A stretch of 11,738 nucleotides of DNA. It comes from Stephanodiscus triporus (lineage: Eukaryota; Bacillariophyta; Thalassiosirophyceae; Thalassiosirales; Thalassiosiraceae). Position numbers and translations under genes: made by a program. The stretch's first letter is position 1; every line of letters starts with the position of its first letter. Below are positions 447-11,738 of the stretch, piece by piece. The DNA is taken from NCBI GenBank assembly GCA_036939755.1, contig JALLAZ010001088.1:1-11738 (forward strand). The letters are read 5' to 3'. A model generated the notes under the pieces. It ran no database searches and had not been told where the DNA came from. It saw only the letters and a program-made list of their open reading frames with translations.

Positions 447-3400
447 TTATGATCTATGTTTGTTGTCAACATTTCTTGTCCACTCTTCTGGCAACTCATT
501 TATTCCTATGCGCCGTAATCTCTTGCCATCACGAGACATACTCTTACCTTTCTTATCCAAATTTTGATATCCAATCTTCACAAGCACATTTAAGAAGGTT
601 TCAGGTGACAGTGCACATCGCAACTGGGTAAGGACAAAGTCTGACACAAATCCCGCACTACAGCAATCACGGAACACTCGTGTGGCACTCTGAGCTACAA
701 GTGCATCGGGTAAATCAAGCCTACCACAACACTTGATGAACGTGCCAAAGATGACCGGATTTGGGCAAATCATGGGATAAGGTTTGTTGCAAATACGATC
801 CATGGCCGTCTCTGCAACGCGGAAGGCTTTCATTTGATTTTCTGGCGAGGCTTTCACGAGATTGCCGACTTCATCTTGTAAAGTATCGGCAAAAGCACAC
901 GCATTAAGGACCTAAATCGTCGCACGAGACGAAGAAAGATCAATAATTTCATGCAACGGCAGATTGTTCAAGGGTATCTGCACACTCAAGATGTGTCGCC
1001 AAACTTACCATTGAATATGCCTGTACAGTAGGCTTCGCATCATTATTCCCATTAGCATAGTTCTTTTCCATCATCTCCAAAACCTCCAATGCCCCCTCTG
1101 CCTTTCTCTCCGAGGGACTACGTGCCCATGCCGTTATCGCAAGGATATAACACCGCTGTGTTGTCCTCATTCTTGATTCCTCGCCCCTCTTCGTTGCTCT
1201 TGCCATATCCTGTTCCATTCTAGACAGTAACTCCGTGGCTCTTTCGCCCGCGTCGACGGAGCCACATGAGCTCCAAGCGTAAAAAACGGATAGGCAAGCA
1301 TATGTGTTCGGTCGTAAGGCATCAATATTCTTGCTTAGCTGCATCATGGCGTTGAAAAGTTCGTCTGCGACGACGCCAGAGTCAGGACGACGCAGGATAG
1401 AATGAGCATCAATTACAGATGTGAACGCAAAAATCGGATTAGTCTTGTTTTGATATGACGGCAGCAACTCCTTGTAACCTTGACGGTACATTTTTATCAT
1501 CCTTCGAAGGAGTTTCAACGCACGGTCGGGCGCTTTCGCTTCCATCCGTCCAGCACCCTTGGTATAATGATAAATGATGTATGCAAATGATCGCTCATCT
1601 GGCCTAACGTCGGCATTTCCATTGTGATGGAATTTGAGCATTCTATCAAGCACGAGTTCGGCCCTTCTGCCCCCGTCTGGAGTGCGGGCACGTGCCCATT
1701 GCTGAATAACAGTATTGAACGAGAAGGAATCGGGGCGAACTGGGAGCTCCATGTCTTCGATACCGTCCAACATAGATCGCATGGCGCTGCTTTCGAAATT
1801 ATCAACCATGGAAAATAACATGGACTCTGCCTCCTCCAACCGGCCGTTGTACGCAAATGAGTCAATGACAGCGTTGTACGTGCGAATGTTCGGCTTCACG
1901 CGAGGGAAACCATCTGCGTGACGTTCTTGCATGTGTCTCAATATCTCCGAGCAACGTTCTCCCGGATTTACAACGTCAATGCCAGCACCATTTTGATGCT
2001 CGCCCCCACTACGCGACCAACATGCGCATACCATTGTGTAGTGGAAGACGTCGGGAGGGTCGTCAATTCTGCCATGGAGGTAAAGGGACTCCATCCCACG
2101 TACAACGGCGTCGGCGGCAAGGGCGGCTTCAAGCTTACCGTGTGGAATTCGCTGGTACGTATTCAGCACACTCGCGAAGGTGTACGCGTCTGGACGATGA
2201 TTGTGCGATAACATTCTGCTCAGGATTGATTCTGCCGCCATTCCTGCCCACAACGGGTTGAATAATCTCGATTTATTCTTTTTTGTAACCTTTGAGACTC
2301 CGTTTCCAGTTTTTGTGTTCTCCTTCTTCTCGTAATTATCATCATACTTCTTGTTATCGCTGTCATTGTCTTTGTAGTATTTCGCCAATGACGTGTCCAA
2401 CCTCGCAGCGGAATTAGTTATCACACCTAGTGCGATATTGTAGCTACGTTGATTCGGTCTTACGCTTGGCATGTCAAGTTCAATTGCCAAACTTTCCATT
2501 CTATCTAGTAATCTCATGACTGTTGCGGCATGATCCACATTGCTCTGCTGTTCACGAGAGTAGGCCACAAGAATGGAGTTGTAGACCTCAACGTCAAGAT
2601 CGCGCGCCTTATCGTGCTGACGGAGAGACGTGTACGATGGCGACGATGTGATTCCGCTGTCGTATGATTCAGCTCCCTCCTCTGTGTCGCTGTCGTTGAC
2701 ATTGTCAACCTCCAGCGTGACATCATTGGAATCAAATAACTCATCTCCATCGATAGACAAATCATCTTCATTAATATCGCCATCCATATCCATGTCATCA
2801 TCAACAATCACACTTGCTGTAGCCTCTGATTTTTTTTCGTTTTCACCATACTTATATTCATCGTCATCATGAGCACCAAATGCTTCTCGTCTAGTCCTCC
2901 ATTTCGGCGAAGAATGCCGGCGATGGTGAAGTGCATCCCTACGCGCCCATGCCTCGAGGCGATCCAAAATAGCCACTGCACGCTCGATCCGATCTAGGTC
3001 AGTAAATTCTGTGACTTTCCGTTGACTGCCGATGTCATGCTGCTGACGGTGTCGTGTCCTTGCGTCGTTACCACCATTGTGGTGACTGCTACTGCTAGTT
3101 CCCCGACAACCGCGCAACCAAGCGTGAATCACCAATGAATAACTCAATGCATCCGGATGGACGTCATCGCCATCGCAGCCGATCCCACTCGGATCAACCT
3201 GGCCAATGTCGAAATCGCGTCGATTATCATCAGCAACTTCCGAAAATGATGATGACGATGGTGCCTCCATGCGCTTCAACAATATATCCTCGGCGCGCAC
3301 GGCAGCGTGTGAGTCGTACCTCGAGGCACGACTCCATGCGTTTAACACCGAATTGTAATTGATGGTGTTGGGTGGAAACGTCAGTTCGTCCATACGGGGC

Positions 3401-4244
3401 TCATACCAGTGTAGATCGTCAATTTCGCTCCTATCGCCTTCGCTGCTCAAGTCGTTCGCCTTATCCTTGTTGTTGTCATCGATGTCGCGGGCCACCGCAA
3501 CAATAGTCGCCTCGTCATTGTCGCTGTCCTTGTCGGGTCCGAAGGAGGACGAGGACGAGAATGAAGACGACGACGTCCATGATCCCTTTATCCACACATT
3601 GTAGTTATTGTCTGCCGCGCCACTGCTGATGCTGCCACCCTCCTCATCTTCGGCACTCTTCTCATCATAATGAACCCCGTTGCGGATATAACCCCCCAAC
3701 TCTCCCCCCTTTTCAAATCGAGCGGTGCCACCGTAGTATCCGACTCCATTGCTACTGCGCACGCCACTGCCACCGACACCCACGCGTTCCTTGTACCGCC
3801 GATGCTTGATTATCATGTCCTCCAACATATCCTGCGCCTCCCTCGCCGGATCGTATCGTCTTTCCTGCCTTTGCTGTCTCTGCTGCTGCCCAGATCCCGC
3901 CGTCGCGATGCCACGCTCGCTTCGATGAGGGGATGACAACGACGATGACGACTCCGGCACAAAAGACAAGGAGCAGCAGCTCTTGGCGAGCGCGTTCATC
4001 ACCGCCGAGTACGTGTAGCAGTTCGGCCTCATCCCCGGCTCGAATTTCACCGACGACGACGGGTCGTAATGTCCCAATCGGATCATCATATTCAGTATCT
4101 CTTTGGCCCGCATCGCCGCCCGCTTGGTGATCTCGTCCGACCTCACTGCTCTTTGCTGTTGTTGCAATGATGGCATTGACGGCGAGGAAGAAGCAGAAGC
4201 AGAAGCAGAAGCAGAAGCAGAAGCAGAAGCAGAAGCAGAAGCAG
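447..4244 (-). CDS. Long PPR protein, C-terminal part (no start of its own)
   Basis: Organellar-type RNA-binding PPR protein. It reads from the Ser-Ala repeat to a TAA at 447-449, with one intron (912-1008). PPR helix signatures recur along it: NCYTYSAVMNALAKS (about 3976-4020), NTINYNSVLNAWSRAS (about 3321-3370), DALSYSLVIHAWLRG (about 3112-3160), NIRTYNAVIDSFAYNG (about 1845-1895), DSFSFNTVIQQWARA (about 1690-1735) and RCYILAITAWARS (about 1120-1160). Acidic and Ser-rich inserts separate them, as is common in diatom PPR proteins. The C-terminus after the intron begins VLNACAFAD and ends with ELPEEWTRNV, a plausible conserved tail. PPR proteins bind single-stranded RNA in mitochondria or plastids and act in processing, stability or translation. 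No targeting peptide is present because the natural N-terminus is missing. The frame stays open upstream through the repeat into the bromodomain exon, and there is no ATG before the first PPR motif except within the Ser-Pro-Met linker. I think its true N-terminus is the fragment at 8352-10140. Confidence 0.88.
912..1008 (-). other. Intron in the PPR gene (97 bp, phase 0)
   Basis: On the minus strand the donor is ATG|GTAAGT (exon ends at 1009) and the acceptor is GATTTAG|GTCC (exon resumes at 911). Splicing joins QAYSM to VLNACAFAD in frame. Without splicing the reading frame stops near 949 and the conserved C-terminal 155 or so residues are lost. Both sides read as PPR protein, so the intron is well supported. 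Confidence 0.9.
4191..4244 (+). repeat. (AAGCAG)9 microsatellite, copy 1
   Basis: Nine perfect AAGCAG hexamers (54 bp), flanked on the right by imperfect units (ACGCAG, CGGCAG). Read on the minus strand it encodes alternating Ser-Ala and lies between bromodomain-derived and PPR-derived coding sequence. An identical nine-unit array sits at 8352-8405 next to the N. This is the left boundary of the suspected misjoined block. Confidence 0.97.
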
Positions 4245-5620
4245 ACGCAGCGGCAGCAGAAGAAGCATCCACAGCAGAAGGACTGTCTACGGCAGTAGCA
4301 GCATTGAAAGTAGCACCTGTCGCTGCAGTCTCTGGGTCAACCAAAGCCAACGAAGCTGCGTTTCTAACCGCCTCCAAGACCTTTTCGTCCACGTGATCCT
4401 CGAAGTCTCTGGTAAGCACAGCATAGTCGCTTTCACTTCAGTTCATAGACCAGTAATTCATTATTTTTTCACATTGGCCAGAGAGGAACGAGGGAGTAAG
4501 AATTGCGATTTTTGCACGAGGTCAAAACATTCACCGAGCCCAGCCAAACGAAAAGAAACAAGGAGCAAAACGTACCGTCCGTTGAACTTGACGCAGTTGT
4601 GACAGATCAAGGCAACACGCTGATGGAGGGATGAGAATGATTTGATCATGCGCGCCACGATCATCTTGCGCACGAGGCTCAGATCCATGGGGAATAATAT
4701 CCTCTCCTTGTAACCAGGAGCTGGAGACGAAGAAACGACCCGGTTCATATCATGAGGAGTCACGGAGATATGTATGGAATCCATCCATTGTACTCACCCT
4801 CCGCGGGATTAACCGGTTTTCGAAACACCGCCGCCGTCCGATGTGCTGAAATCTTTTTGTACAGGGCCAGCAACGCCGTCGTGTCCGGATGTTCCGCGTG
4901 ATAGGCGACATCCTTGTCCAACAACAGTAACGCCCGCTGTTTCTCTAATGCCAGTCGCCTCCTCCTCTCCTCCAACTCTTGATCATTCTTCCTCGACTTG
5001 GCCAGGGAAAGGTGCGCGTGCAGTCGACTGTTGGGCGGGTGGGGCAAATTCATCGGCTCCCGCAGCCGTCCCAGCAAGGCCGATACCGTGAAGTAGCGGT
5101 CAGGCGGCGTGAATTCGGTACTCAGCATGGCGTCGACCGATTCCAGGTAATTGACGTGTTCCCTCCCCGGCTCCCCATTCGGCTGGTAGACCGTCGGTAG
5201 GAGGGGTATGCGGAGCATCGTTGGCTCCCTCAACGGCGACAACGGTGGCGGAGGAGGAGCTCCTCCTCCTCCCTCGTCGCTCATTCGGCCATTATCCGAT
5301 CTGTGCCGTCCTTCTTCGTGGATACCTATTTCTCTCTCCAACGTTTCTATTTCCCTTTCCCTTTCGAGAGCGAGTAGAAAGGCAAATAACGAATCAGAAA
5401 TGGCGAAAATTGATCATCCACGGAAACACGGGGGCACCACAGGGGGGTGGAGGGGCGACGGGGGGTGGGAGGGGCGAGCTTACAGCGCATCTTCGCAGGC
5501 CACCGCCTCCTTTACTATGACGCCGAGCTCGTGCATCGGGAGGCCGGCGGCCAGTCTTGACAGCGTAACGGGTAGTATGTCCCGAACGGCATCGGGGATC
5601 GGATCCTCCTCCATTTCCAT
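4245..5620 (-). CDS. Bromodomain protein, 5' four exons
   Basis: Chromatin-reader type protein with one complete bromodomain, assembled here from four exons: 5620-5484, 5360-4798, 4720-4576 and 4435 onward. The proposed start is ATG at 5620-5618 (MEMEEDPIPDAV), because an in-frame stop lies upstream. Residues ~1-60 are helical (ILPVTLSRLAAGLPMHELG, then an ALEREIETLEREI coiled coil), followed by a Gly/Pro-rich stretch, a basic helix (QELEERRRRLALEKQRALLL) and the bromodomain. The domain shows the ZA-loop elements FRKPVNPAEAPGYKERI, then PMDLSLVRKMI, then ICHNCVKFNG, whose Asn matches the conserved acetyl-lysine-binding Asn and whose loop Tyr is present. The final helix is DYAVLTRDFEDHVDEK. 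Bromodomains bind acetylated lysines in histones in the nucleus. After VLEAVRNAASLALVDPE the sequence becomes low complexity, enters the Ser-Ala repeat and continues in frame into PPR sequence. The true C-terminus is therefore probably absent. The exon structure is my inference from splice consensus and domain continuity; the N-terminal 190 residues match no family I can name. Confidence 0.85.
4436..4575 (-). other. Intron 3 of the bromodomain gene (140 bp)
   Basis: Donor GGACG|GTACGT with the exon ending at 4576. The acceptor is TGAAG|TGAAAG with the exon resuming at 4435. Splicing restores NGRESDYAVLTRDFE, the B-to-C helix segment of the bromodomain. A second acceptor six bases further (exon from 4429) is also in frame and would drop Glu-Ser. 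The intron is well supported; the choice between acceptors is not. Confidence 0.82.
4721..4797 (-). other. Intron 2 of the bromodomain gene (77 bp)
   Basis: Donor GCGGAGG|GTGAGT (exon ends at 4798) and acceptor GTCTCCAG|CTCCTGG (exon resumes at 4720). Splicing creates an Ala codon across the junction and gives NPAEAPGYKERI, restoring the bromodomain ZA loop. The pyrimidine-rich tract before the acceptor is clear. Confidence 0.88.
5361..5483 (-). other. Intron 1 of the bromodomain gene (123 bp)
   Basis: Donor GATGCGCT|GTAAGC (exon ends at 5484). The acceptor is CTCTCGAAAG|GGAAAG (exon resumes at 5360), preceded by a pyrimidine-rich run and a CTGAT branch-like motif. Joining gives a continuous ACEDALEREIETLEREI helix. 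The upstream exon has strong coding character but no similarity I can name, so this intron is less certain than the two inside the bromodomain. Confidence 0.7.
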
Positions 5621-6535
5621 TCCTTCGTTGCCAGTATCGTCTTTGACAGGGTTGGGAGGGATGTTCTTTTAGTCTGTTTATTCATATATTGTATTCCGTA
5701 GATATTTTTTGTATGGTACGATACGAATGAAAATGAAAAAGTCTCTTTTATTGCTCTCTGGTTTGCCAGAGAAAGGATATCCACTATCGTACTGTAATGC
5801 ATTGGCCTCTTGGAGGTCTGCAATGATGATGCGAGAAGCATCTGTTCCAGCTAATGGTTGGAAGGAGGATTAGGATGTTTTGTGATTCCAATGGGCAATT
5901 GTGGGTGTAGATGATAATATTGAAACTCTGCGAAAGAAATTAACTCGTTAACTTTGATTTACATGAGCCATAGGAGTGCTTTTCTTGCACAAGCACCATC
6001 ACATGCATGAAAAATTAGTGAATAGCCATGGCAAAGCAAGCCTTTTCTATGTACCCCTCAACCTCCCTCAAATAATTCACTATGCGACTAAGTAATTGAG
6101 ATGCGCGCGAAAGAGTATCACACAAGGAAAAGAAAAGAGGTGTAAATTAGTTGCAATATTGTCCGGAGTGCTGATAAACGTAATCAGCATGTGCCATCTT
6201 CATTTTTGCTCCTTTCTTCCTTAGACGACGTCCTTCTTCAAATATTTGCTGAACAATTATGTATGGTCATTGATTAAATTCCTTTTCTTGTTGGTAGATC
6301 TGTACTACTGCAGGACGCGCAAGCTAGAGATTATTTCGAGAGGTCAGCATGACATCAACACATAAGACATGACTGGAATGATTCATCACAATCCAAGTGC
6401 AGTCAACCCTTCAGCCGACTCCCAACTCTAAAACATTCCAAAGCATGGTCACCTCCCAACACTTGAACACACCGAATCAATAAAACATCCCGACAGTCTC
6501 CATGTGCTTCATCTTCAAACGTCTTTATATTTCAG
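5621..6535. other. Intergenic region between U2AF and the bromodomain gene
   Basis: About 0.9 kb of AT-rich DNA between the U2AF stop codon and the proposed bromodomain start, on the downstream side of one minus-strand gene and the upstream side of the next. It should hold the U2AF 3' UTR and the bromodomain promoter. I see no tRNA, repeat or convincing coding frame. The minus-strand frame at 5515-5841 lacks protein character and overlaps the first bromodomain exon in another frame. Confidence 0.5.
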
Positions 6536-8350
6536 CTAACTGAGATTACCCCTGGAGTAATCCTCTTCCCCAAAGTACGTGGCATCGACGACGTTCGGGC
6601 CAAATGCGCGTCCCTTCAGTTCCCTCTCGGCGCTCGTGGCATCGTTGGGACTGGCATATTCAAGAAAGATCTTCTTGACGGCGCTGGGCGCGTACCCCTC
6701 CTGTTCGTGTTGTTTCGCACCGCAAGCGTGAGACAACGAAAGACGTGTGAGCATGCGAAAAATATCGCATTGCGCCATAGCGATAGTAACAAAACGCAAT
6801 ACGGAACGTACCCCAGGCCTTGGAATCTTCATCGATAGCAACTTGCCGTACCGCGATACCTCCTCGCGGACCTCCTCCTCGAGCATCTTGTGATCGTCTA
6901 CCGTTGCCAGGTCTTCGTCCGTAACCATATTGAGCAGGACTAATATACGCGTGGGAGCGGGAGCCAGTTGCTGGGCGAGCACGGCCGGAGAGGGGGGCAA
7001 CGCTCCGCCCCCGAACGCGGCGTCGAGCGCGCTCGCGGCGGCGTTGGCCACGGCCATCGGATCGGCGACGACCAGCCCCTGCGGCTGATGCATCTGCTGC
7101 ATCTGGGGCTGCTGCGACATCATGCCCATCCCGTACATGCCCATCTGTGTTCCCGGAAGCATCCCCGTAGGCTGTTGTTGCTGCTGCTGCATCATCATTG
7201 CGCCCATCGGTCCCACGCCCACGGCGGGATTGGCCATGCCGGGAACCATCCCAACCATCGGCGTCGGCGCCGCCAGTCCTCCGCCGACGCCTCCGAGGGC
7301 CGCCATGAGTAGGGCGTCGACGTCCACTCCGTCGACGACGCTCGCCTGGATCGGCGGCGCGGCGACGGGCGCGCCGAACGCACCGCCCCCCTGCTGCTCC
7401 AAGGCGCCCTGATGCAACATCAACCCACCGGAGAACTGCTGAGAGGCCATGCGACAGCTCAGTTGTTTCCCCCCCCCCATGTCCATCCCGTTCAGTCCCA
7501 TGCACGCCACTTGGGTGATGTTCGGGTCCGAGTACTCCACGAAGCAATACCCCTTCGAGGTCACGGCGTTATTGTCCTGCTTCACCAGGTGGAAGGCCTT
7601 CACGGCCCCGAACGCGCCGAGCAACTCCAAAACCTGACCCTCGCTCAGGTGGTACGGCAGCCCGCCGATGAATATCTTGTTCGGGCCGTCGGGGACGGTG
7701 GGACTCACGATCCCGAGCCTCGCCGTGTCGAGTCGCGGCGCCGCGTCGTCGTTGATCCTCGGCGCGAGCGCGGCGTTGTAGTCGTTGGGACGCTTCACCT
7801 TCACCTTCCCCTGTCCCATGACGTCGACGCCGTCGAGCGCGAGACACGCCGACGTGATCTCCATGGTCTTGAATTCGAGGAAGACGAATCGTCGCTCGCG
7901 GTTGATGTACACGCTGATTATCGGGTCGCTGTCGACGTATTGCGCCCTGTGCAATGCCGCGTTGGGATTCGCGCTCGGATCGAGAACGATGGAATCGCGT
8001 ATCGCGTCGCGAAAGAACGCGTGGACCTCGTCCTCGGACAGATCTGGGACGTTCCCGATGTAGAGACGTCGGGCGTGTCTGGTCTGCTGAGGCTGCGTGA
8101 TCGACGACGAGGAGGACGAGGAGGACGAGGGGGGAGGGCGCTGCCCCTGGGCGTTGAGCCCGATGTTGGCCCCGGTCGCACCCGCCGCCAGACCCCCCAC
8201 CCTCATCCCCACGGCGTGACTCGCCTCGAGGGCCGCGCGAGCCTCGTCCTCGGCGAGCTGCTCGGGGGTAGGCTCGACGTCGAACTTGGTCCTGCGCGAT
8301 CGACGCGCCCGACGTCGGTCGTCGACCCAGTCCCGCTCCTCCTCGTAGGA
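6536..8350 (-). CDS. U2AF2: U2AF large subunit splicing factor, 5' truncated at the N
   Basis: Nuclear splicing factor that binds the polypyrimidine tract and helps recruit U2 snRNP to the branch site. Counting from the N, residues 1-25 are an Arg-rich remnant (RRRARRSRRTKFD). RRM1 (about 94-187) has RNP2-like LYIGNV and RNP1-like RFVFLEF, ending VKVKRPNDYNAAL. RRM2 (about 225-300) has KIFIGGLPYHLSEGQV and GYCFVEY. A long Gly/Met/Gln-rich linker with a six-Gln run follows. The C-terminal UHM-type RRM (from about 469) starts ILVLLNMVTDEDL, carries YGKLLSMKIPRPG, and after an intron continues KKIFLEYASPNDA and GRAFGPNVVDATYF, containing the UHM Arg-X-Phe motif. Domain order and signatures match the U2AF65 family closely. 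The stop is TAG at 6536-6538. The N at 8351 removes the start codon and most of the N-terminal RS domain. GC content and CGN arginine use are higher than in the bromodomain gene next door. Confidence 0.93.
   Translation of the reverse strand, partial: SYEEERDWVDDRRRARRSRRTKFDVEPTPEQLAEDEARAALEASHAVGMRVGGLAAGATGANIGLNAQGQRPPPSSSSSSSSSITQPQQTRHARRLYIGNVPDLSEDEVHAFFRDAIRDSIVLDPSANPNAALHRAQYVDSDPIISVYINRERRFVFLEFKTMEITSACLALDGVDVMGQGKVKVKRPNDYNAALAPRINDDAAPRLDTARLGIVSPTVPDGPNKIFIGGLPYHLSEGQVLELLGAFGAVKAFHLVKQDNNAVTSKGYCFVEYSDPNITQVACMGLNGMDMGGGKQLSCRMASQQFSGGLMLHQGALEQQGGGAFGAPVAAPPIQASVVDGVDVDALLMAALGGVGGGLAAPTPMVGMVPGMANPAVGVGPMGAMMMQQQQQQPTGMLPGTQMGMYGMGMMSQQPQMQQMHQPQGLVVADPMAVANAAASALDAAFGGGALPPSPAVLAQQLAPAPTRILVLLNMVTDEDLATVDDHKMLEEEVREEVSRYGKLLSMKIPRPGVRSVLRFVTIAMAQCDIFRMLTRLSLSHACGAKQHEQEGYAPSAVKKIFLEYASPNDATSAERELKGRAFGPNVVDATYFGEEDYSRGNLS
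6701..6811 (-). other. Stop-free 111-bp intron in the U2AF UHM domain
   Basis: Donor CCTGGG|GTACGT (exon ends at 6812) and acceptor CACGAACAG|GAGGGG (exon resumes at 6700), phase 0. Removal gives KIPRPGEGYAPSAVKKIF, which matches the compact strand-loop-strand of U2AF UHM domains. The intron is a multiple of three with no in-frame stop, so an open frame reads through it and would add 37 non-conserved residues if it is counted as coding. Confidence 0.85.
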
Positions 8351-8351
8351 N
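8351..8351. other. Single undetermined base: probable assembly junction
   Basis: The only N in the window. It sits exactly at the edge of an AAGCAG array, between the 5'-truncated U2AF gene and the 3'-truncated PPR gene. Neither gene can be read across it: the U2AF frame continues as a meaningless Phe-Cys run and the PPR frame as Arg/Thr-rich shadow sequence. This fits a contig join of unknown size, not a single uncalled base. Confidence 0.85.
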
Positions 8352-8405
8352 AAGCAGAAGCAGAAGCAGAAGCAGAAGCAGAAGCAGAAGCAGAAGCAGA
8401 AGCAG
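8352..8405 (+). repeat. (AAGCAG)9 microsatellite, copy 2
   Basis: Nine perfect hexamers directly abutting the N, identical in unit, number and phase to the array at 4191-4244. On the minus strand it encodes the Ser-Ala run that ends the readable part of the N-terminal PPR fragment. Its true length is unknown because the array ends at the junction. Confidence 0.97.
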
Positions 8406-10140
8406 AAGACGAAGATGGCACAGAAGACACGAAATCGGATGACAACGCGGACGGGGACGACGAAGACGATGCTGCCGCCGTCGCGCCGTCTCGGTGATTG
8501 TGTCGGTAATCCTGCGCGGCGAGCGCAGTGCACTTGACCCACGCGTCCACGACCGCCGTGAAGGTGACGACGTCCGGCTTGACCCTTTCGTTGCCCCCGC
8601 CCCCCTCCCCCCCGAACCTCCACTCCCTCATCATCTCCCCCAGCAGAAGCTCCGCCATCTCCCCCGCGCTCGGGTGGTAGCTCTTGCTCCACGCGTTTAT
8701 GGCGGCGTTGTAGCTTATCGTCGACGGGGCAAGTCGCGGGTCGCCCGTGCGCGCGTGGGTCTCCACGAGCGCGTCGTGTATCCGATGCGCCCGCTGGGCG
8801 GCCGCGCCCAGCGGCATAGTCGTCGTCGTCGTCTCCGTCGTCCGTTCCCGCCCGTGCCGACGGGCCCCGCCAATCGCGACGTCCCGATCCTGGTAACCGT
8901 CGTCGTCGTCGTCTCCTCCTCCTCCTTCCTTGTCGTAATCGTCGTCGTCCGAGGACGACGATCCATGCCGCCGCCGTCGCTTCTTCCCCTCGAAGCCGAA
9001 GATCCCGCCACCGTCGGCGTCCCTTCCGCGACTGCTCCCCGCCCCACCGCCGCCGATTCCAAACGAGAACGACGGACGACGCTGGCTCTTGGCCCACGCG
9101 TCCATGGCGACGGTGTACATCTTCGTCGTCACCCTCGCGCCGTCGTAGTCCTCGTCGTCATAATCATCGTCGTCGTCGTAGTCGTCATAGTCGTCGTCGT
9201 CGTCGTAGTAGTAGTAATCGTCGTCGTAGTCGTCGTCGCCTCTCCTATTCATGTCCACCTCCATCACCACCCTGCGCAGCAGTCGCTCGCACGTGACCGC
9301 CGACGACACCGTTCCCCGACGCGCGTGCGACGCCATGAGGGAGGTTATTAGGTCGACGTCGTCGGAGGTGAGACGACGACGACGTCGCGAGCGCCGTCTT
9401 CGTCGACTACGACTCCGCGGTGCGTCGTAGTCGTCCCCGTCGTTGCCTCCATCATCATAACCGTCGTCTTCTTCTTCCCCCTCCTCCTGGTCGTCGTCGT
9501 CGTCGTCGTCGTCGAGCGACAGTATCCTTGCGGTCGTCCGATCGAGCCACGAGTCGTATGCGACGCCGTCGCCGTCCCCGACGAGGGGGGGGACAGGAGG
9601 GGGGGGAGCGACTGCGACTGCGCCTGCGACTGCGGGCGCGGGCGTCGTCCTCGCAGTATTCTTCGCTGTCCTCGCAGTATTCTTCATTGTCGTCGTAGTA
9701 GTCTTCATTGTCGTCGTAGTAGTCTTCGTCGTCCCGGCGACTCGCCGCATCCCCCGCAGACGCAATCGTCCGCGCTGCCGCCGCGACGCGTGCGACGACG
9801 ACGACGCGGTCGCCGAAAGTGATAGACGGCGACATGCCGCCCCCACGCACCCGCGCATCGCGAACGGGGCGGCGGGGGGTCCGACGAGGGGCGGGGGAGG
9901 AGCACGCGATGTCGACAGCGCGACCACCGCGACGAACGTTGCCACCGTCGTCGTGGTGGTCGCGCACAGCGTCAGCGCGGCCAACAGCATCAGCGATGTC
10001 GGCGTCGCCGTCGTTATTCCGGATACGAGCACTTGAGCCCGTCGTCGTGGTCGTGGTCGTGGTCGTGGCCGTGGTCGACGCGACGGCCCTCTCGTCATAG
10101 TCGTCGTAGTCGTCGCAGTCGTCGTCCCGGCGTTGCCCAT
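8352..10140 (-). CDS. PPR protein, N-terminal part (3' truncated at the N)
   Basis: An ATG at 10140-10138 opens a 596-residue frame running to the N. Residues 20-34 are an Arg/Pro run, and residues 49-76 are hydrophobic (LMLLAALTLCA, VATFVAVVALS), resembling a signal peptide or anchor. Met51 (9990-9988) would give a more typical signal-peptide start. Low-complexity Thr, Asp/Glu and Arg stretches follow. PPR motifs are visible at about 343 (MYTVAMDAWAKS), 472-485 (STISYNAAINAWSKS) and 520-535 (PDVVTFTAVVDAWVKC). They are separated by Asp/Tyr- and Gly-rich inserts, and the frame ends in the Ser-Ala run. The next expected piece, a helix leading to another PPR motif, is absent here but present at the start of the C-terminal fragment at 4190 and below. 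Likely destination is an organelle, but I see no canonical diatom plastid cleavage motif with Phe, so plastid versus mitochondrion is open. The PPR-containing part is secure; the first 200 or so residues could contain an unrecognised intron or frameshift. Confidence 0.78.
9141..9238 (-). repeat. GTC/GTA trinucleotide run encoding Asp/Tyr-rich insert
   Basis: An impure (GTC)n and (GTA)n tract on the plus strand. On the minus strand it reads GAC, GAT and TAC codons, giving an acidic Asp/Tyr-rich insert between two PPR motifs. The opposite strand reads as a long valine run, which is clearly an artefact. Such trinucleotide expansions recur through this coding region. Confidence 0.85.
9648..9731 (-). 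repeat. Four 21-bp tandem repeats in the PPR N-terminal region
   Basis: Units at 9648-9668, 9669-9689, 9690-9710 and 9711-9731. The first two share TCCTCGCAGTATTCTTC and the last two share TCGTCGTAGTAGTCTTC. In the PPR frame they encode seven-residue Thr-rich or Asn-Thr-Ala-Arg-type units (about residues 137-164). In another minus-strand frame they encode acidic Asp/Tyr/Glu units. The repeat is clear; which frame is translated is less so. Confidence 0.9.
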
Positions 10141-10793
10141 CGCGACTAATATGTTTTGAGTGGAATGGCCCTCCTCCCCAGCTGGCTCTCTCTCTGGATG
10201 TGATTAGGTTGGAATATAGTATATTCTTAGAATGGAGGGCCGAGTTACCCCCTTGCGCCTCCCTCCCCCGTTGGCATCGCTCGGGGAGAGTGGAGGGCAG
10301 GGAAATCGACGGCGAAGGTGAGGAAGGAATGCGGGCGAGGGAGGATGGGAGAAGATGGGATGGGACCACGCCTTAGTTTTCGTCTACATACGGTACAAGA
10401 CATCTTCGGTATGTAAATAGATCGCTTACTTTTTTCACTACTACCTTAGGTACTCTGTTCGCTAAAACAATGTTTACCTAAAAAAGTACAATAGATAGCC
10501 CACAAACACAACTCCACAATGGTTTCCGATGCTTCACCAGGCACCGCCGACCCCAAGATGAATGAATATTTCATTCATCCGACCGTGCATGCGCGCAGGA
10601 TGGGTACTTAAAATGTCCCCATCCGACAATTATTGACTATTGACGGAGATATTTGGTCAGACAGCGGTTGGTTTTTGGCAGGGTTTGGAGTTGTGGGGCA
10701 CCTGACACGCAAATAGCTAGGTGGAAGCTAGGTAAAAAAAATCACCCCAATCATGATGGCCGCCATCGCCTCATGGCCACTATGGTGCCCCCA

Positions 10794-10812
10794 CCCCCCC
10801 CCCCCCCCCCCC
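10794..10812 (+). repeat. Poly-C tract of 19
   Basis: An uninterrupted run of 19 C, with more C on each side separated by single A or G bases. It lies in non-coding DNA upstream of the PPR gene. The exact length is likely unreliable because such homopolymers are hard to sequence. Confidence 0.9.
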
Positions 10813-11085
10813 GCCCGGCTCTGAGGCATTCAACAATCATCCAACATGCGATGCGACAAGTCCATGTCGTTAAAACGAGAGAATTAAATTGTTGTTACTA
10901 TTTATTAGCTAGTAGAAGCCACGTCACATCATTGACATGCTGCTCAACAATCGCCAAGCTATCATCGCCCCCCACTGCCCCTACTAGCCTCTAGAAACCA
11001 CCCCTGCTAGGGGGTCCATTAATTATTTTGGCCAAAACAATTTGCTCCAAATGCCACTTTTAGAGTTGTATCATGTATTTATGTC

Positions 11086-11549
11086 GGTCCCCAAATTGGA
11101 ACAACTCCCAAACCGATTCTGGGACTCCCTCATTTGGAATGCCTACCAATTTGGGGATCCCCGTTTTGGTTCGGGATCCCCGATTTGAGTGCTGCTCCAA
11201 TTTGGGGATTCGGCCTATCATTATACATGTTGGTCCCCAAATAGGAACAAACTCCAAACCGATTCTGGGGCTCCCTGATTTGGAATGGTGTAATTTCCCT
11301 ACCTGAACCAATTTGGGGATCCCCGTTTCGGTTCGGGGTCCCCAATTTTGTCGCTCCAATTTGGGGACTAAAATGCATTTTCCCGAATTGGAACAATCCC
11401 CAAACCCCAAACTGATTCTGGTTAGTGATGGAACCAATCCCCAAACCAATTTAGGGATCCCTGTTTTGATATGGGGATTGCGTTATGATCCCCAAATTGG
11501 TTTGAGGATTCCCTGTGACGTGCATCCCCAAACCAATTTGGGGATCCCC
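11086..11549. repeat. Degenerate ~147-bp repeats with CCAATTTGGGGATCCCC core
   Basis: A long unit beginning GGTCCCCAAATTGGAACAA at 11086 recurs at 11232 (146 bp later), and a weaker copy starts near 11382. Both full units contain CCAAACCGATTCTGGG and CTCCCTNATTTGGAATG. The 17-base core CCAATTTGGGGATCCCC is exact at 11146-11162, 11308-11324 and 11533-11549. Variants of CCAATTTGGGG occur at 11197, 11356 and 11446, and its reverse complement at 11089 and 11490. GGGGATCCCC is itself a palindrome, so the array can form many small hairpins. A 16-bp indel separates the two full units. It resembles decayed satellite or a MITE-like dispersed repeat; I see no flanking target duplication or encoded protein. 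Confidence 0.85.
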
Positions 11550-11738
11550 ACATCAGAAGCCCGAATACGGTTCGGCGAAGCCATAATAGGTACCGGATAG
11601 TTTTAATGGCTATGTACAAACATAGATCTTTTTGACGTTATTTTGAATTCGTTTGAATAGTAGCTTAAATCACGGAAATTAACCTAAATGTCTGCTCAAT
11701 AAACAAAATTTGCCTGATCTGGAGCATATTGACCGTTT

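What the first reader, a model, noticed from the sequence alone, without database searches (positions are those of the whole stretch)
4191..8405. One PPR gene split by a 4.1-kb block bounded by identical AAGCAG arrays
The PPR fragment at 8352-10140 has a start but no end, and the PPR fragment below 4190 has an end but no start. Both meet an identical nine-unit AAGCAG array in the same Ser-Ala frame, and the order of motifs is what one would expect of a continuous protein: PDVVTFTAVVDAWVKC on one side, then an RAAMRAKEILNMMI helix and NCYTYSAVMNALAKS on the other. The block between holds two unrelated genes, each broken at a block edge: bromodomain 3' end missing, U2AF 5' end missing. Deleting the block would leave an intact PPR gene. 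This fits a repeat-mediated assembly chimera; a real transposed or inserted segment is the alternative. One point against: the N-terminal PPR half is visibly more GC-rich than the far C-terminal half, although the part next to the left array is intermediate.
Basis: partly seen in the sequence, partly recalled or inferred. Interest (0 to 1): 0.8.

Follow-up and report, generated by a model that had tools for sequence, protein, structure and literature searches.

The report
Assembly error splitting a diatom gene
A single RNA-binding-protein gene of a diatom looks cut in two because assembly software pasted a piece with two other genes into it at a short repeated sequence; it is most likely a mistake in the assembled sequence and not a real rearrangement.

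Summary
Two (AAGCAG)9 arrays (4191-4244, 8352-8405), the only ones in the 21.65-Mb assembly, bracket 4.1 kb that splits one pentatricopeptide-repeat (PPR) gene. The only two other N runs in a 200-kb sample are single Ns between pieces whose ends overlap by 72 bp; at 8351 the ends do not overlap. Single proteins of centric diatoms and metagenomes run through both PPR halves: 11 of the 22 relatives I fetched (of 58 hits). None of the 58 carries a bromodomain. Collapsing the block onto one array gives an open frame of 1676 codons whose motif spacing across the junction (131 residues) lies inside that of ten relatives (104-197). The block itself is ordinary: a U2AF-large-subunit gene beside a bromodomain gene. 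Best reading: an assembly chimera, with a contig-level false join through the array on the left and a scaffold-level false join (the N) on the right. No reads could be examined. A real insertion is unlikely (about 4%). Not a biological novelty.

The parts
8410..10140 (-). 5' half of the PPR gene (577 codons, ATG at 10140), ending in PPR helix A VKPDVVTFTAVVDAWVKC plus a Ser-rich linker
   Evidence: matches the N-terminal part of P0001, P0003, P0004, P0005, P0007, P0012, P0013, P0017, P0019, P0020, P0021
8352..8408 (.). right AAGCAG run (57 nt), first bases of the right-hand piece of the scaffold; its first 55 nt recur exactly at 4191-4245
8351..8351 (.). single N, read as the mark of a scaffold join; no overlap between the two ends it joins
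6539..8350 (-). U2AF large-subunit gene, 5' end missing (about 160 residues, Gly/Arg-rich in the closest relative); intron about 6701-6811, placed by eye
4246..5620 (-). bromodomain gene, 4 exons placed by eye (5484-5620, 4798-5360, 4576-4720, 4246-4435), runs without a stop into the left array
4189..4245 (.). left AAGCAG run (57 nt), the point of the inferred false contig-level join between bromodomain tail and PPR C-half
450..4188 (-). 3' part of the PPR gene: rest of the long exon (4188 to about 1009) and second exon 911-450; starts at PPR helix B (AAMRAKEILNMMI)

Best explanation
The 4.1-kb block is an assembly chimera in a draft genome of a centric diatom close to the Thalassiosirales (placement inferred from the nearest protein hits). 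The true genome has one continuous PPR gene of roughly 1,800 residues with a Ser-Ala array in a linker inside one PPR motif. Elsewhere it has an ordinary neighbouring pair, U2AF large subunit and a bromodomain gene whose Ala/Ser-rich tail ends in or beside a like array. The assembler ran from the bromodomain tail through the array into the PPR C-half (left edge, unmarked). The PPR N-half was left as a separate piece starting in the array, and the scaffolder attached it to the far end of the block (right edge, marked by the single N). Shown: PPR continuity in relatives, the N, the absence of end overlap, the normal block content. Inferred: which program steps made each join, and that an array lies in the bromodomain tail.
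For: (1) 11 of 22 fetched relatives (of 58 hits) carry the PPR N-half end and the PPR C-half head in one chain; P0001 aligns to the collapsed product in one stretch (1567 columns, 66.8% identity) across the junction. (2) Spacing from V(K/R)PDVVTFTA to RPNCYTYSAV is 131 residues in the collapsed frame and 104-197 in ten relatives. (3) The same 22 relatives aligned to the as-assembled bromodomain-tail/PPR-C frame (best stretch each): every alignment starts at residue 93 or later, beyond tail and array. (4) The N abuts the array; the only two other N runs in 200,000 bases of 20 contigs are single Ns between ends with 72-bp overlap, 71/72 and 72/72 identical; 8351 has none in an ungapped test. (5) The first 55 nt right of the N are an exact copy of 4191-4245, as expected of a piece that starts at a shared repeat. 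(6) Both block genes are broken at the edges.
Against: No reads, coverage or read pairs could be examined. The left junction carries no mark and reads through in frame. No other contig with the missing U2AF 5' end or bromodomain 3' end was found, so the true neighbours are not shown. The 55-nt shared stretch does not match the 72-bp overlap of the other two joins, so one k-mer setting does not explain all. Only three N sites were seen in all. In Thalassiosira profunda the bromodomain and U2AF genes share a 3,369,355-bp contig but their tags are 22 apart (ACHAXT_006695, ACHAXT_006673), so close linkage is not general. The PPR gene's GC fall (0.665 to 0.489 between outer thirds) is near the top of the range of 19 long frames (largest 0.191), and its largest GC step between 150-codon bins is at the junction (0.66 to 0.58).
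Confidence: 0.94

Rival explanations
1. A real segmental insertion: in this strain or on one haplotype a 4.1-kb piece with two partial genes was copied or moved into the array of the PPR gene, by unequal exchange or repair at like repeats.
For: The left junction reads through without a gap and in frame; both edges are at identical repeats, which recombination could use.
Against: The right junction is a join at N, not sequence. Both block genes would have been truncated at the edges, yet no other copy of U2AF or of this bromodomain gene was found in the assembly (other matches are weak, 28-42% identity), so the only copy of a core splicing factor would be a broken one. The assembly may be incomplete, which weakens this.
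Confidence: 0.04
2. The left junction is real, a bromodomain-PPR fusion gene, and only the right-hand piece was misplaced by the scaffolder.
For: One open frame of 1162 codons from bromodomain exon 4 through the array into the PPR C-half.
Against: 0 of 58 PPR hits carry a bromodomain though the length range of that search admits such a fusion. 0 of 120 listed of 158 bromodomain hits carry PPR, but that search takes proteins of at most about 600 residues and would exclude most fusions. Relatives' PPR C-half continues into the PPR N-half.
Confidence: 0.015
3. A retroposed or transposon-carried block.
For: Direct repeats at both ends.
Against: Three GT-AG introns in the bromodomain gene and one in U2AF are retained (letters, placed by eye); no inverted repeat pairs were reported at a minimum of 25 nt with a 14-nt seed; the repeats are coding arrays, not target-site duplications.
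Confidence: 0.005

Closest known systems
Repeat-induced misassembly with a scaffold join written as a short gap
   Same: Break at a repeat present at two places; a piece that starts with the repeat; a single N at the join. PMC5368935 (passages read) describes overlapping contigs with negative gap sizes and gaps inserted between overlapping contigs, in other assemblers.
   Different: Here the joined ends do not overlap, unlike the two other single-N joins seen in this assembly. Program and settings are unknown, and the passages read do not describe a single-N convention.
PPR proteins of Thalassiosirales (P0001, P0005 and relatives; hits named from Cyclostephanos, Skeletonema and Thalassiosira)
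   Same: Same motif order and spacing over both halves.
   Different: Relatives have a linker of varying length and make-up at the junction and no 4.1-kb block; the nearest by score (P0001) has no long Ser-Ala array.
Bromodomain and U2AF large-subunit genes of Conticribra weissflogii (ACHAXS_011698, ACHAXS_011699)
   Different: Orientation and distance in Conticribra were not seen; in the window each gene is cut at one end.

Membership tests
Assembly chimera through a short repeat | identical repeat at the false joints | tested here: met
   55 nt shared exactly, beginning at the first base after the N
Assembly chimera through a short repeat | a mark of a join at a junction | tested here: met
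   single N at 8351; both other single Ns seen are joins of overlapping pieces; met for the right junction only, the left has no mark
Assembly chimera through a short repeat | interrupted gene is unbroken in relatives | tested here: met
   11 of 22 fetched relatives span both halves; of the other 11, three begin in the N-half end and eight begin downstream of it (read on the letters)
Assembly chimera through a short repeat | no reads or pairs support the junctions; coverage step | not testable with these tools
   no reads held
Real insertion or transposition | sequence-level junctions on both sides | tested here: not met
   right side is a join at N
Real insertion or transposition | a source copy elsewhere, or intact cargo genes | tested here: not met
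   both genes truncated; no second copy found in the assembly, which may be incomplete
PPR protein | PPR motifs by profile | tested here: met
   PF13041 3.6e-18 and PF12854 8.7e-11 in the C-half; the N-half alone gives only 0.059 to PF13041 but aligns to the PPR relatives
U2AF large subunit | RRM domain and homology to annotated U2AF | tested here: met
   PF00076 5.2e-18; 81% identity to Cyclostephanos ACHAXA_001596, named an RRM protein, and further hits named U2AF
Bromodomain protein | bromodomain by profile | tested here: met
   PF00439 1.3e-8

The most novel reading that the evidence does not exclude
In one lineage or haplotype a two-gene block really was captured inside a Ser-Ala coding array of a PPR gene, splitting it and fusing a bromodomain protein tail to the PPR C-half. 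The unmarked in-frame left junction, with no reads to test it, is what keeps this open.
Probability: 0.04. Interest if true: 0.5.

Novelty: not a real feature. Interest (0 to 1): 0.1.

Why it matters
It removes a false split gene, a false bromodomain-PPR fusion frame and two falsely truncated genes from this assembly. It also suggests that single Ns here are joins: two in a 200-kb sample, both with duplicated flanks. Gene models crossing a single N in this genome should be distrusted.

Tried and rejected
Haplotype or duplicate contigs carrying the correct joins: DNA searches with 3900-4500 and 8100-8800 found only the window itself. Missing U2AF 5' end and bromodomain 3' end elsewhere in the assembly: only weak matches. 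One of them, C963:1970-2215, matches U2AF query residues 21-101, E 0.0036, 35% identity, in an open frame of 1037 codons; I judged it Gly-rich chance from the letters of P0179 and did not follow it up. Second copy of the PPR gene: only lower-identity PPR matches, the best 37%. GC step as evidence for two genes: rejected as weak (19 ATG-started frames of at least 500 codons, longest non-overlapping, in the 20 sampled contigs, not verified as genes; 16 fall from first to last third, mean 0.085). A k=55 assembly graph as the exact cause: attractive because the shared stretch is exactly 55 nt, but the other two joins overlap by 72, so not claimed. Literature: two searches on how scaffolders write negative gaps and one on tandem-repeat chimeras in eukaryotic metagenome assemblies gave listings in which I saw no paper on this exact case. 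Passages of PMC5368935 and PMC8110574 were read. A search on PPR in diatoms gave a listing only. Structure prediction was not used; it would not decide the question.

None of these changes the odds.
Full report
What is in the sequence. The window is the whole 11,738-bp contig C1073 of an unnamed 21.65-Mb assembly of 1324 contigs. Two nine-unit AAGCAG arrays lie at 4191-4244 and 8352-8405; the perfect period-6 runs are 4189-4245 and 8352-8408, 57 nt each. The 24-mer (AAGCAG)4 occurs nowhere else in the assembly. The four gene pieces described here are all on the minus strand. Reading that way: PPR N-half (ATG at 10140 to 8410), array, N at 8351, U2AF (8350 to 6539), bromodomain gene (5620 to 4246), array, PPR C-half (4188 to about 1009, then exon 911-450). 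Splice sites were placed by eye on the letters and agree broadly with where relatives match.

Base 8351 is N and is the only ambiguous base in the window. I sampled 200,000 bases (the first 10 kb of each of 20 contigs) and found only two N runs, both single, both in C1072. At each of them the last 72 bases before the N are repeated as the first 72 bases after it (71/72 and 72/72 identical). I read a single N in this assembly as a join of two pieces whose overlapping ends were not merged. At 8351 an ungapped test finds no such overlap (best about 34% identity; longest exact common stretch within 1500 bases either side 12 nt). Instead, the first 55 bases after the N recur exactly at 4191-4245, which is where the right-hand piece should attach if the PPR gene is continuous. 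Three N sites are a small sample; I could not fetch more.

One PPR gene. A search with the C-half gave 58 proteins; I fetched the 22 best. In 11 of these 22 the end of the N-half and the head of the C-half lie in one chain in the right order (P0001, P0003, P0004, P0005, P0007, P0012, P0013, P0017, P0019, P0020, P0021). In P0004 the gene model skips a short stretch at the junction and the two matches overlap. Three more (P0009, P0010, P0011) begin inside the N-half end, and eight begin downstream of it (read on the letters). Collapsing the block onto one array gives an open frame of 1676 codons. Its spacing between the flanking motifs is 131 residues. In ten of the 11 relatives, P0004 left out for its gene model, it is 111, 112, 132, 104, 136, 111, 117, 117, 173 and 197. 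The N-half ends with helix A of a PPR motif and the C-half starts with helix B (my reading of the motif, from knowledge of the family). The frame as assembled, bromodomain tail plus array plus C-half, was aligned to the same 22 proteins, best stretch each: no alignment begins before residue 93, while tail and array end near residue 83. None of the 58 hits carries the bromodomain family PF00439.

An ordinary block. The bromodomain protein matches 158 proteins, of which 120 are listed; none of the 120 carries a PPR family. This search would miss proteins longer than about 600 residues. Ten fetched relatives end 24-49 residues after the motif RESDYA, mostly in Ala/Ser-rich tails; the window has 58 residues after it before the array, so hardly more than the stop may be missing. 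U2AF matches 383 proteins (120 listed); the closest, from Cyclostephanos tholiformis, begins matching at its residue 160, so about 160 residues are missing. In Thalassiosira profunda they share a 3,369,355-bp contig with tags 22 apart. In Cyclostephanos the PPR and U2AF genes are on contigs of 119,444 and 186,137 bp. So U2AF and bromodomain gene are natural neighbours in at least one relative, and the PPR gene is not shown beside them in any. This rests on names and contig lengths in the hit tables; I did not see those records.

GC. In 150-codon bins GC is 0.65-0.68 in the N-half and 0.58, 0.54, 0.51, then 0.46-0.50 along the C-half. The fall has its largest step, 0.66 to 0.58, at the junction; third-position GC falls 0.83 to 0.72 there and more, 0.66 to 0.45, inside the C-half. 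Of 19 open frames of at least 500 codons in the sample, 16 fall from first to last third (mean 0.085, largest 0.191). The PPR gene's fall is 0.176: near the top of that range but not outside it.

Mechanism. Most likely the assembler passed from the bromodomain tail through the array into the PPR C-half. The PPR N-half remained as a piece starting in the array, and the scaffolder attached it to the other end of the block. If its read pairs pointed to the PPR C-half, 4.1 kb inside the left piece, the estimated gap would be negative, which fits a one-base gap without overlap; this last step is inference. Overlapping contigs given negative gaps, and gaps written between overlapping contigs, are described for other assemblers in PMC5368935 (passages read). 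The program used here is unknown.

Alternatives. A real insertion would need both cargo genes cut at the edges. It would also need the only U2AF copy found in the assembly to be broken and a join to fall by chance on one edge. It is not excluded without reads, and I give it about 4%. Retained introns speak against retroposition, and no inverted repeat pairs of at least 25 nt were reported.

Verdict. Observation confirmed, interpretation supported, and sharpened by the N and by relatives. An artefact; interest low.

Noticed in passing
window 11060-11560: Dispersed repeat rich in AATTTGGGGATCCCC-like words: a DNA search gave 23 matches on 16 contigs of the assembly, the window's own contig included (68-91% identity apart from the query itself; counts are lower bounds), four of them starting within 70 bases of a contig start (C972, C887, C560, C1321), so it may break the assembly.
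   Followed up: partly
L044 (C1072) 7898 and 8681: Two single Ns, each with 72 bp before it repeated after it (71/72 and 72/72 identical): unmerged overlaps that create false short duplications.
   Followed up: partly
window 10788-10816: Near-pure C tract of 29 bases (85% matches), between genes.
   Followed up: no
L028-L047 (20 contigs, first 10 kb each): Long open frames tend to fall in GC from 5' to 3' (16 of 19; mean difference first minus last third 0.085), a possible general feature of this diatom genome.
   Followed up: partly
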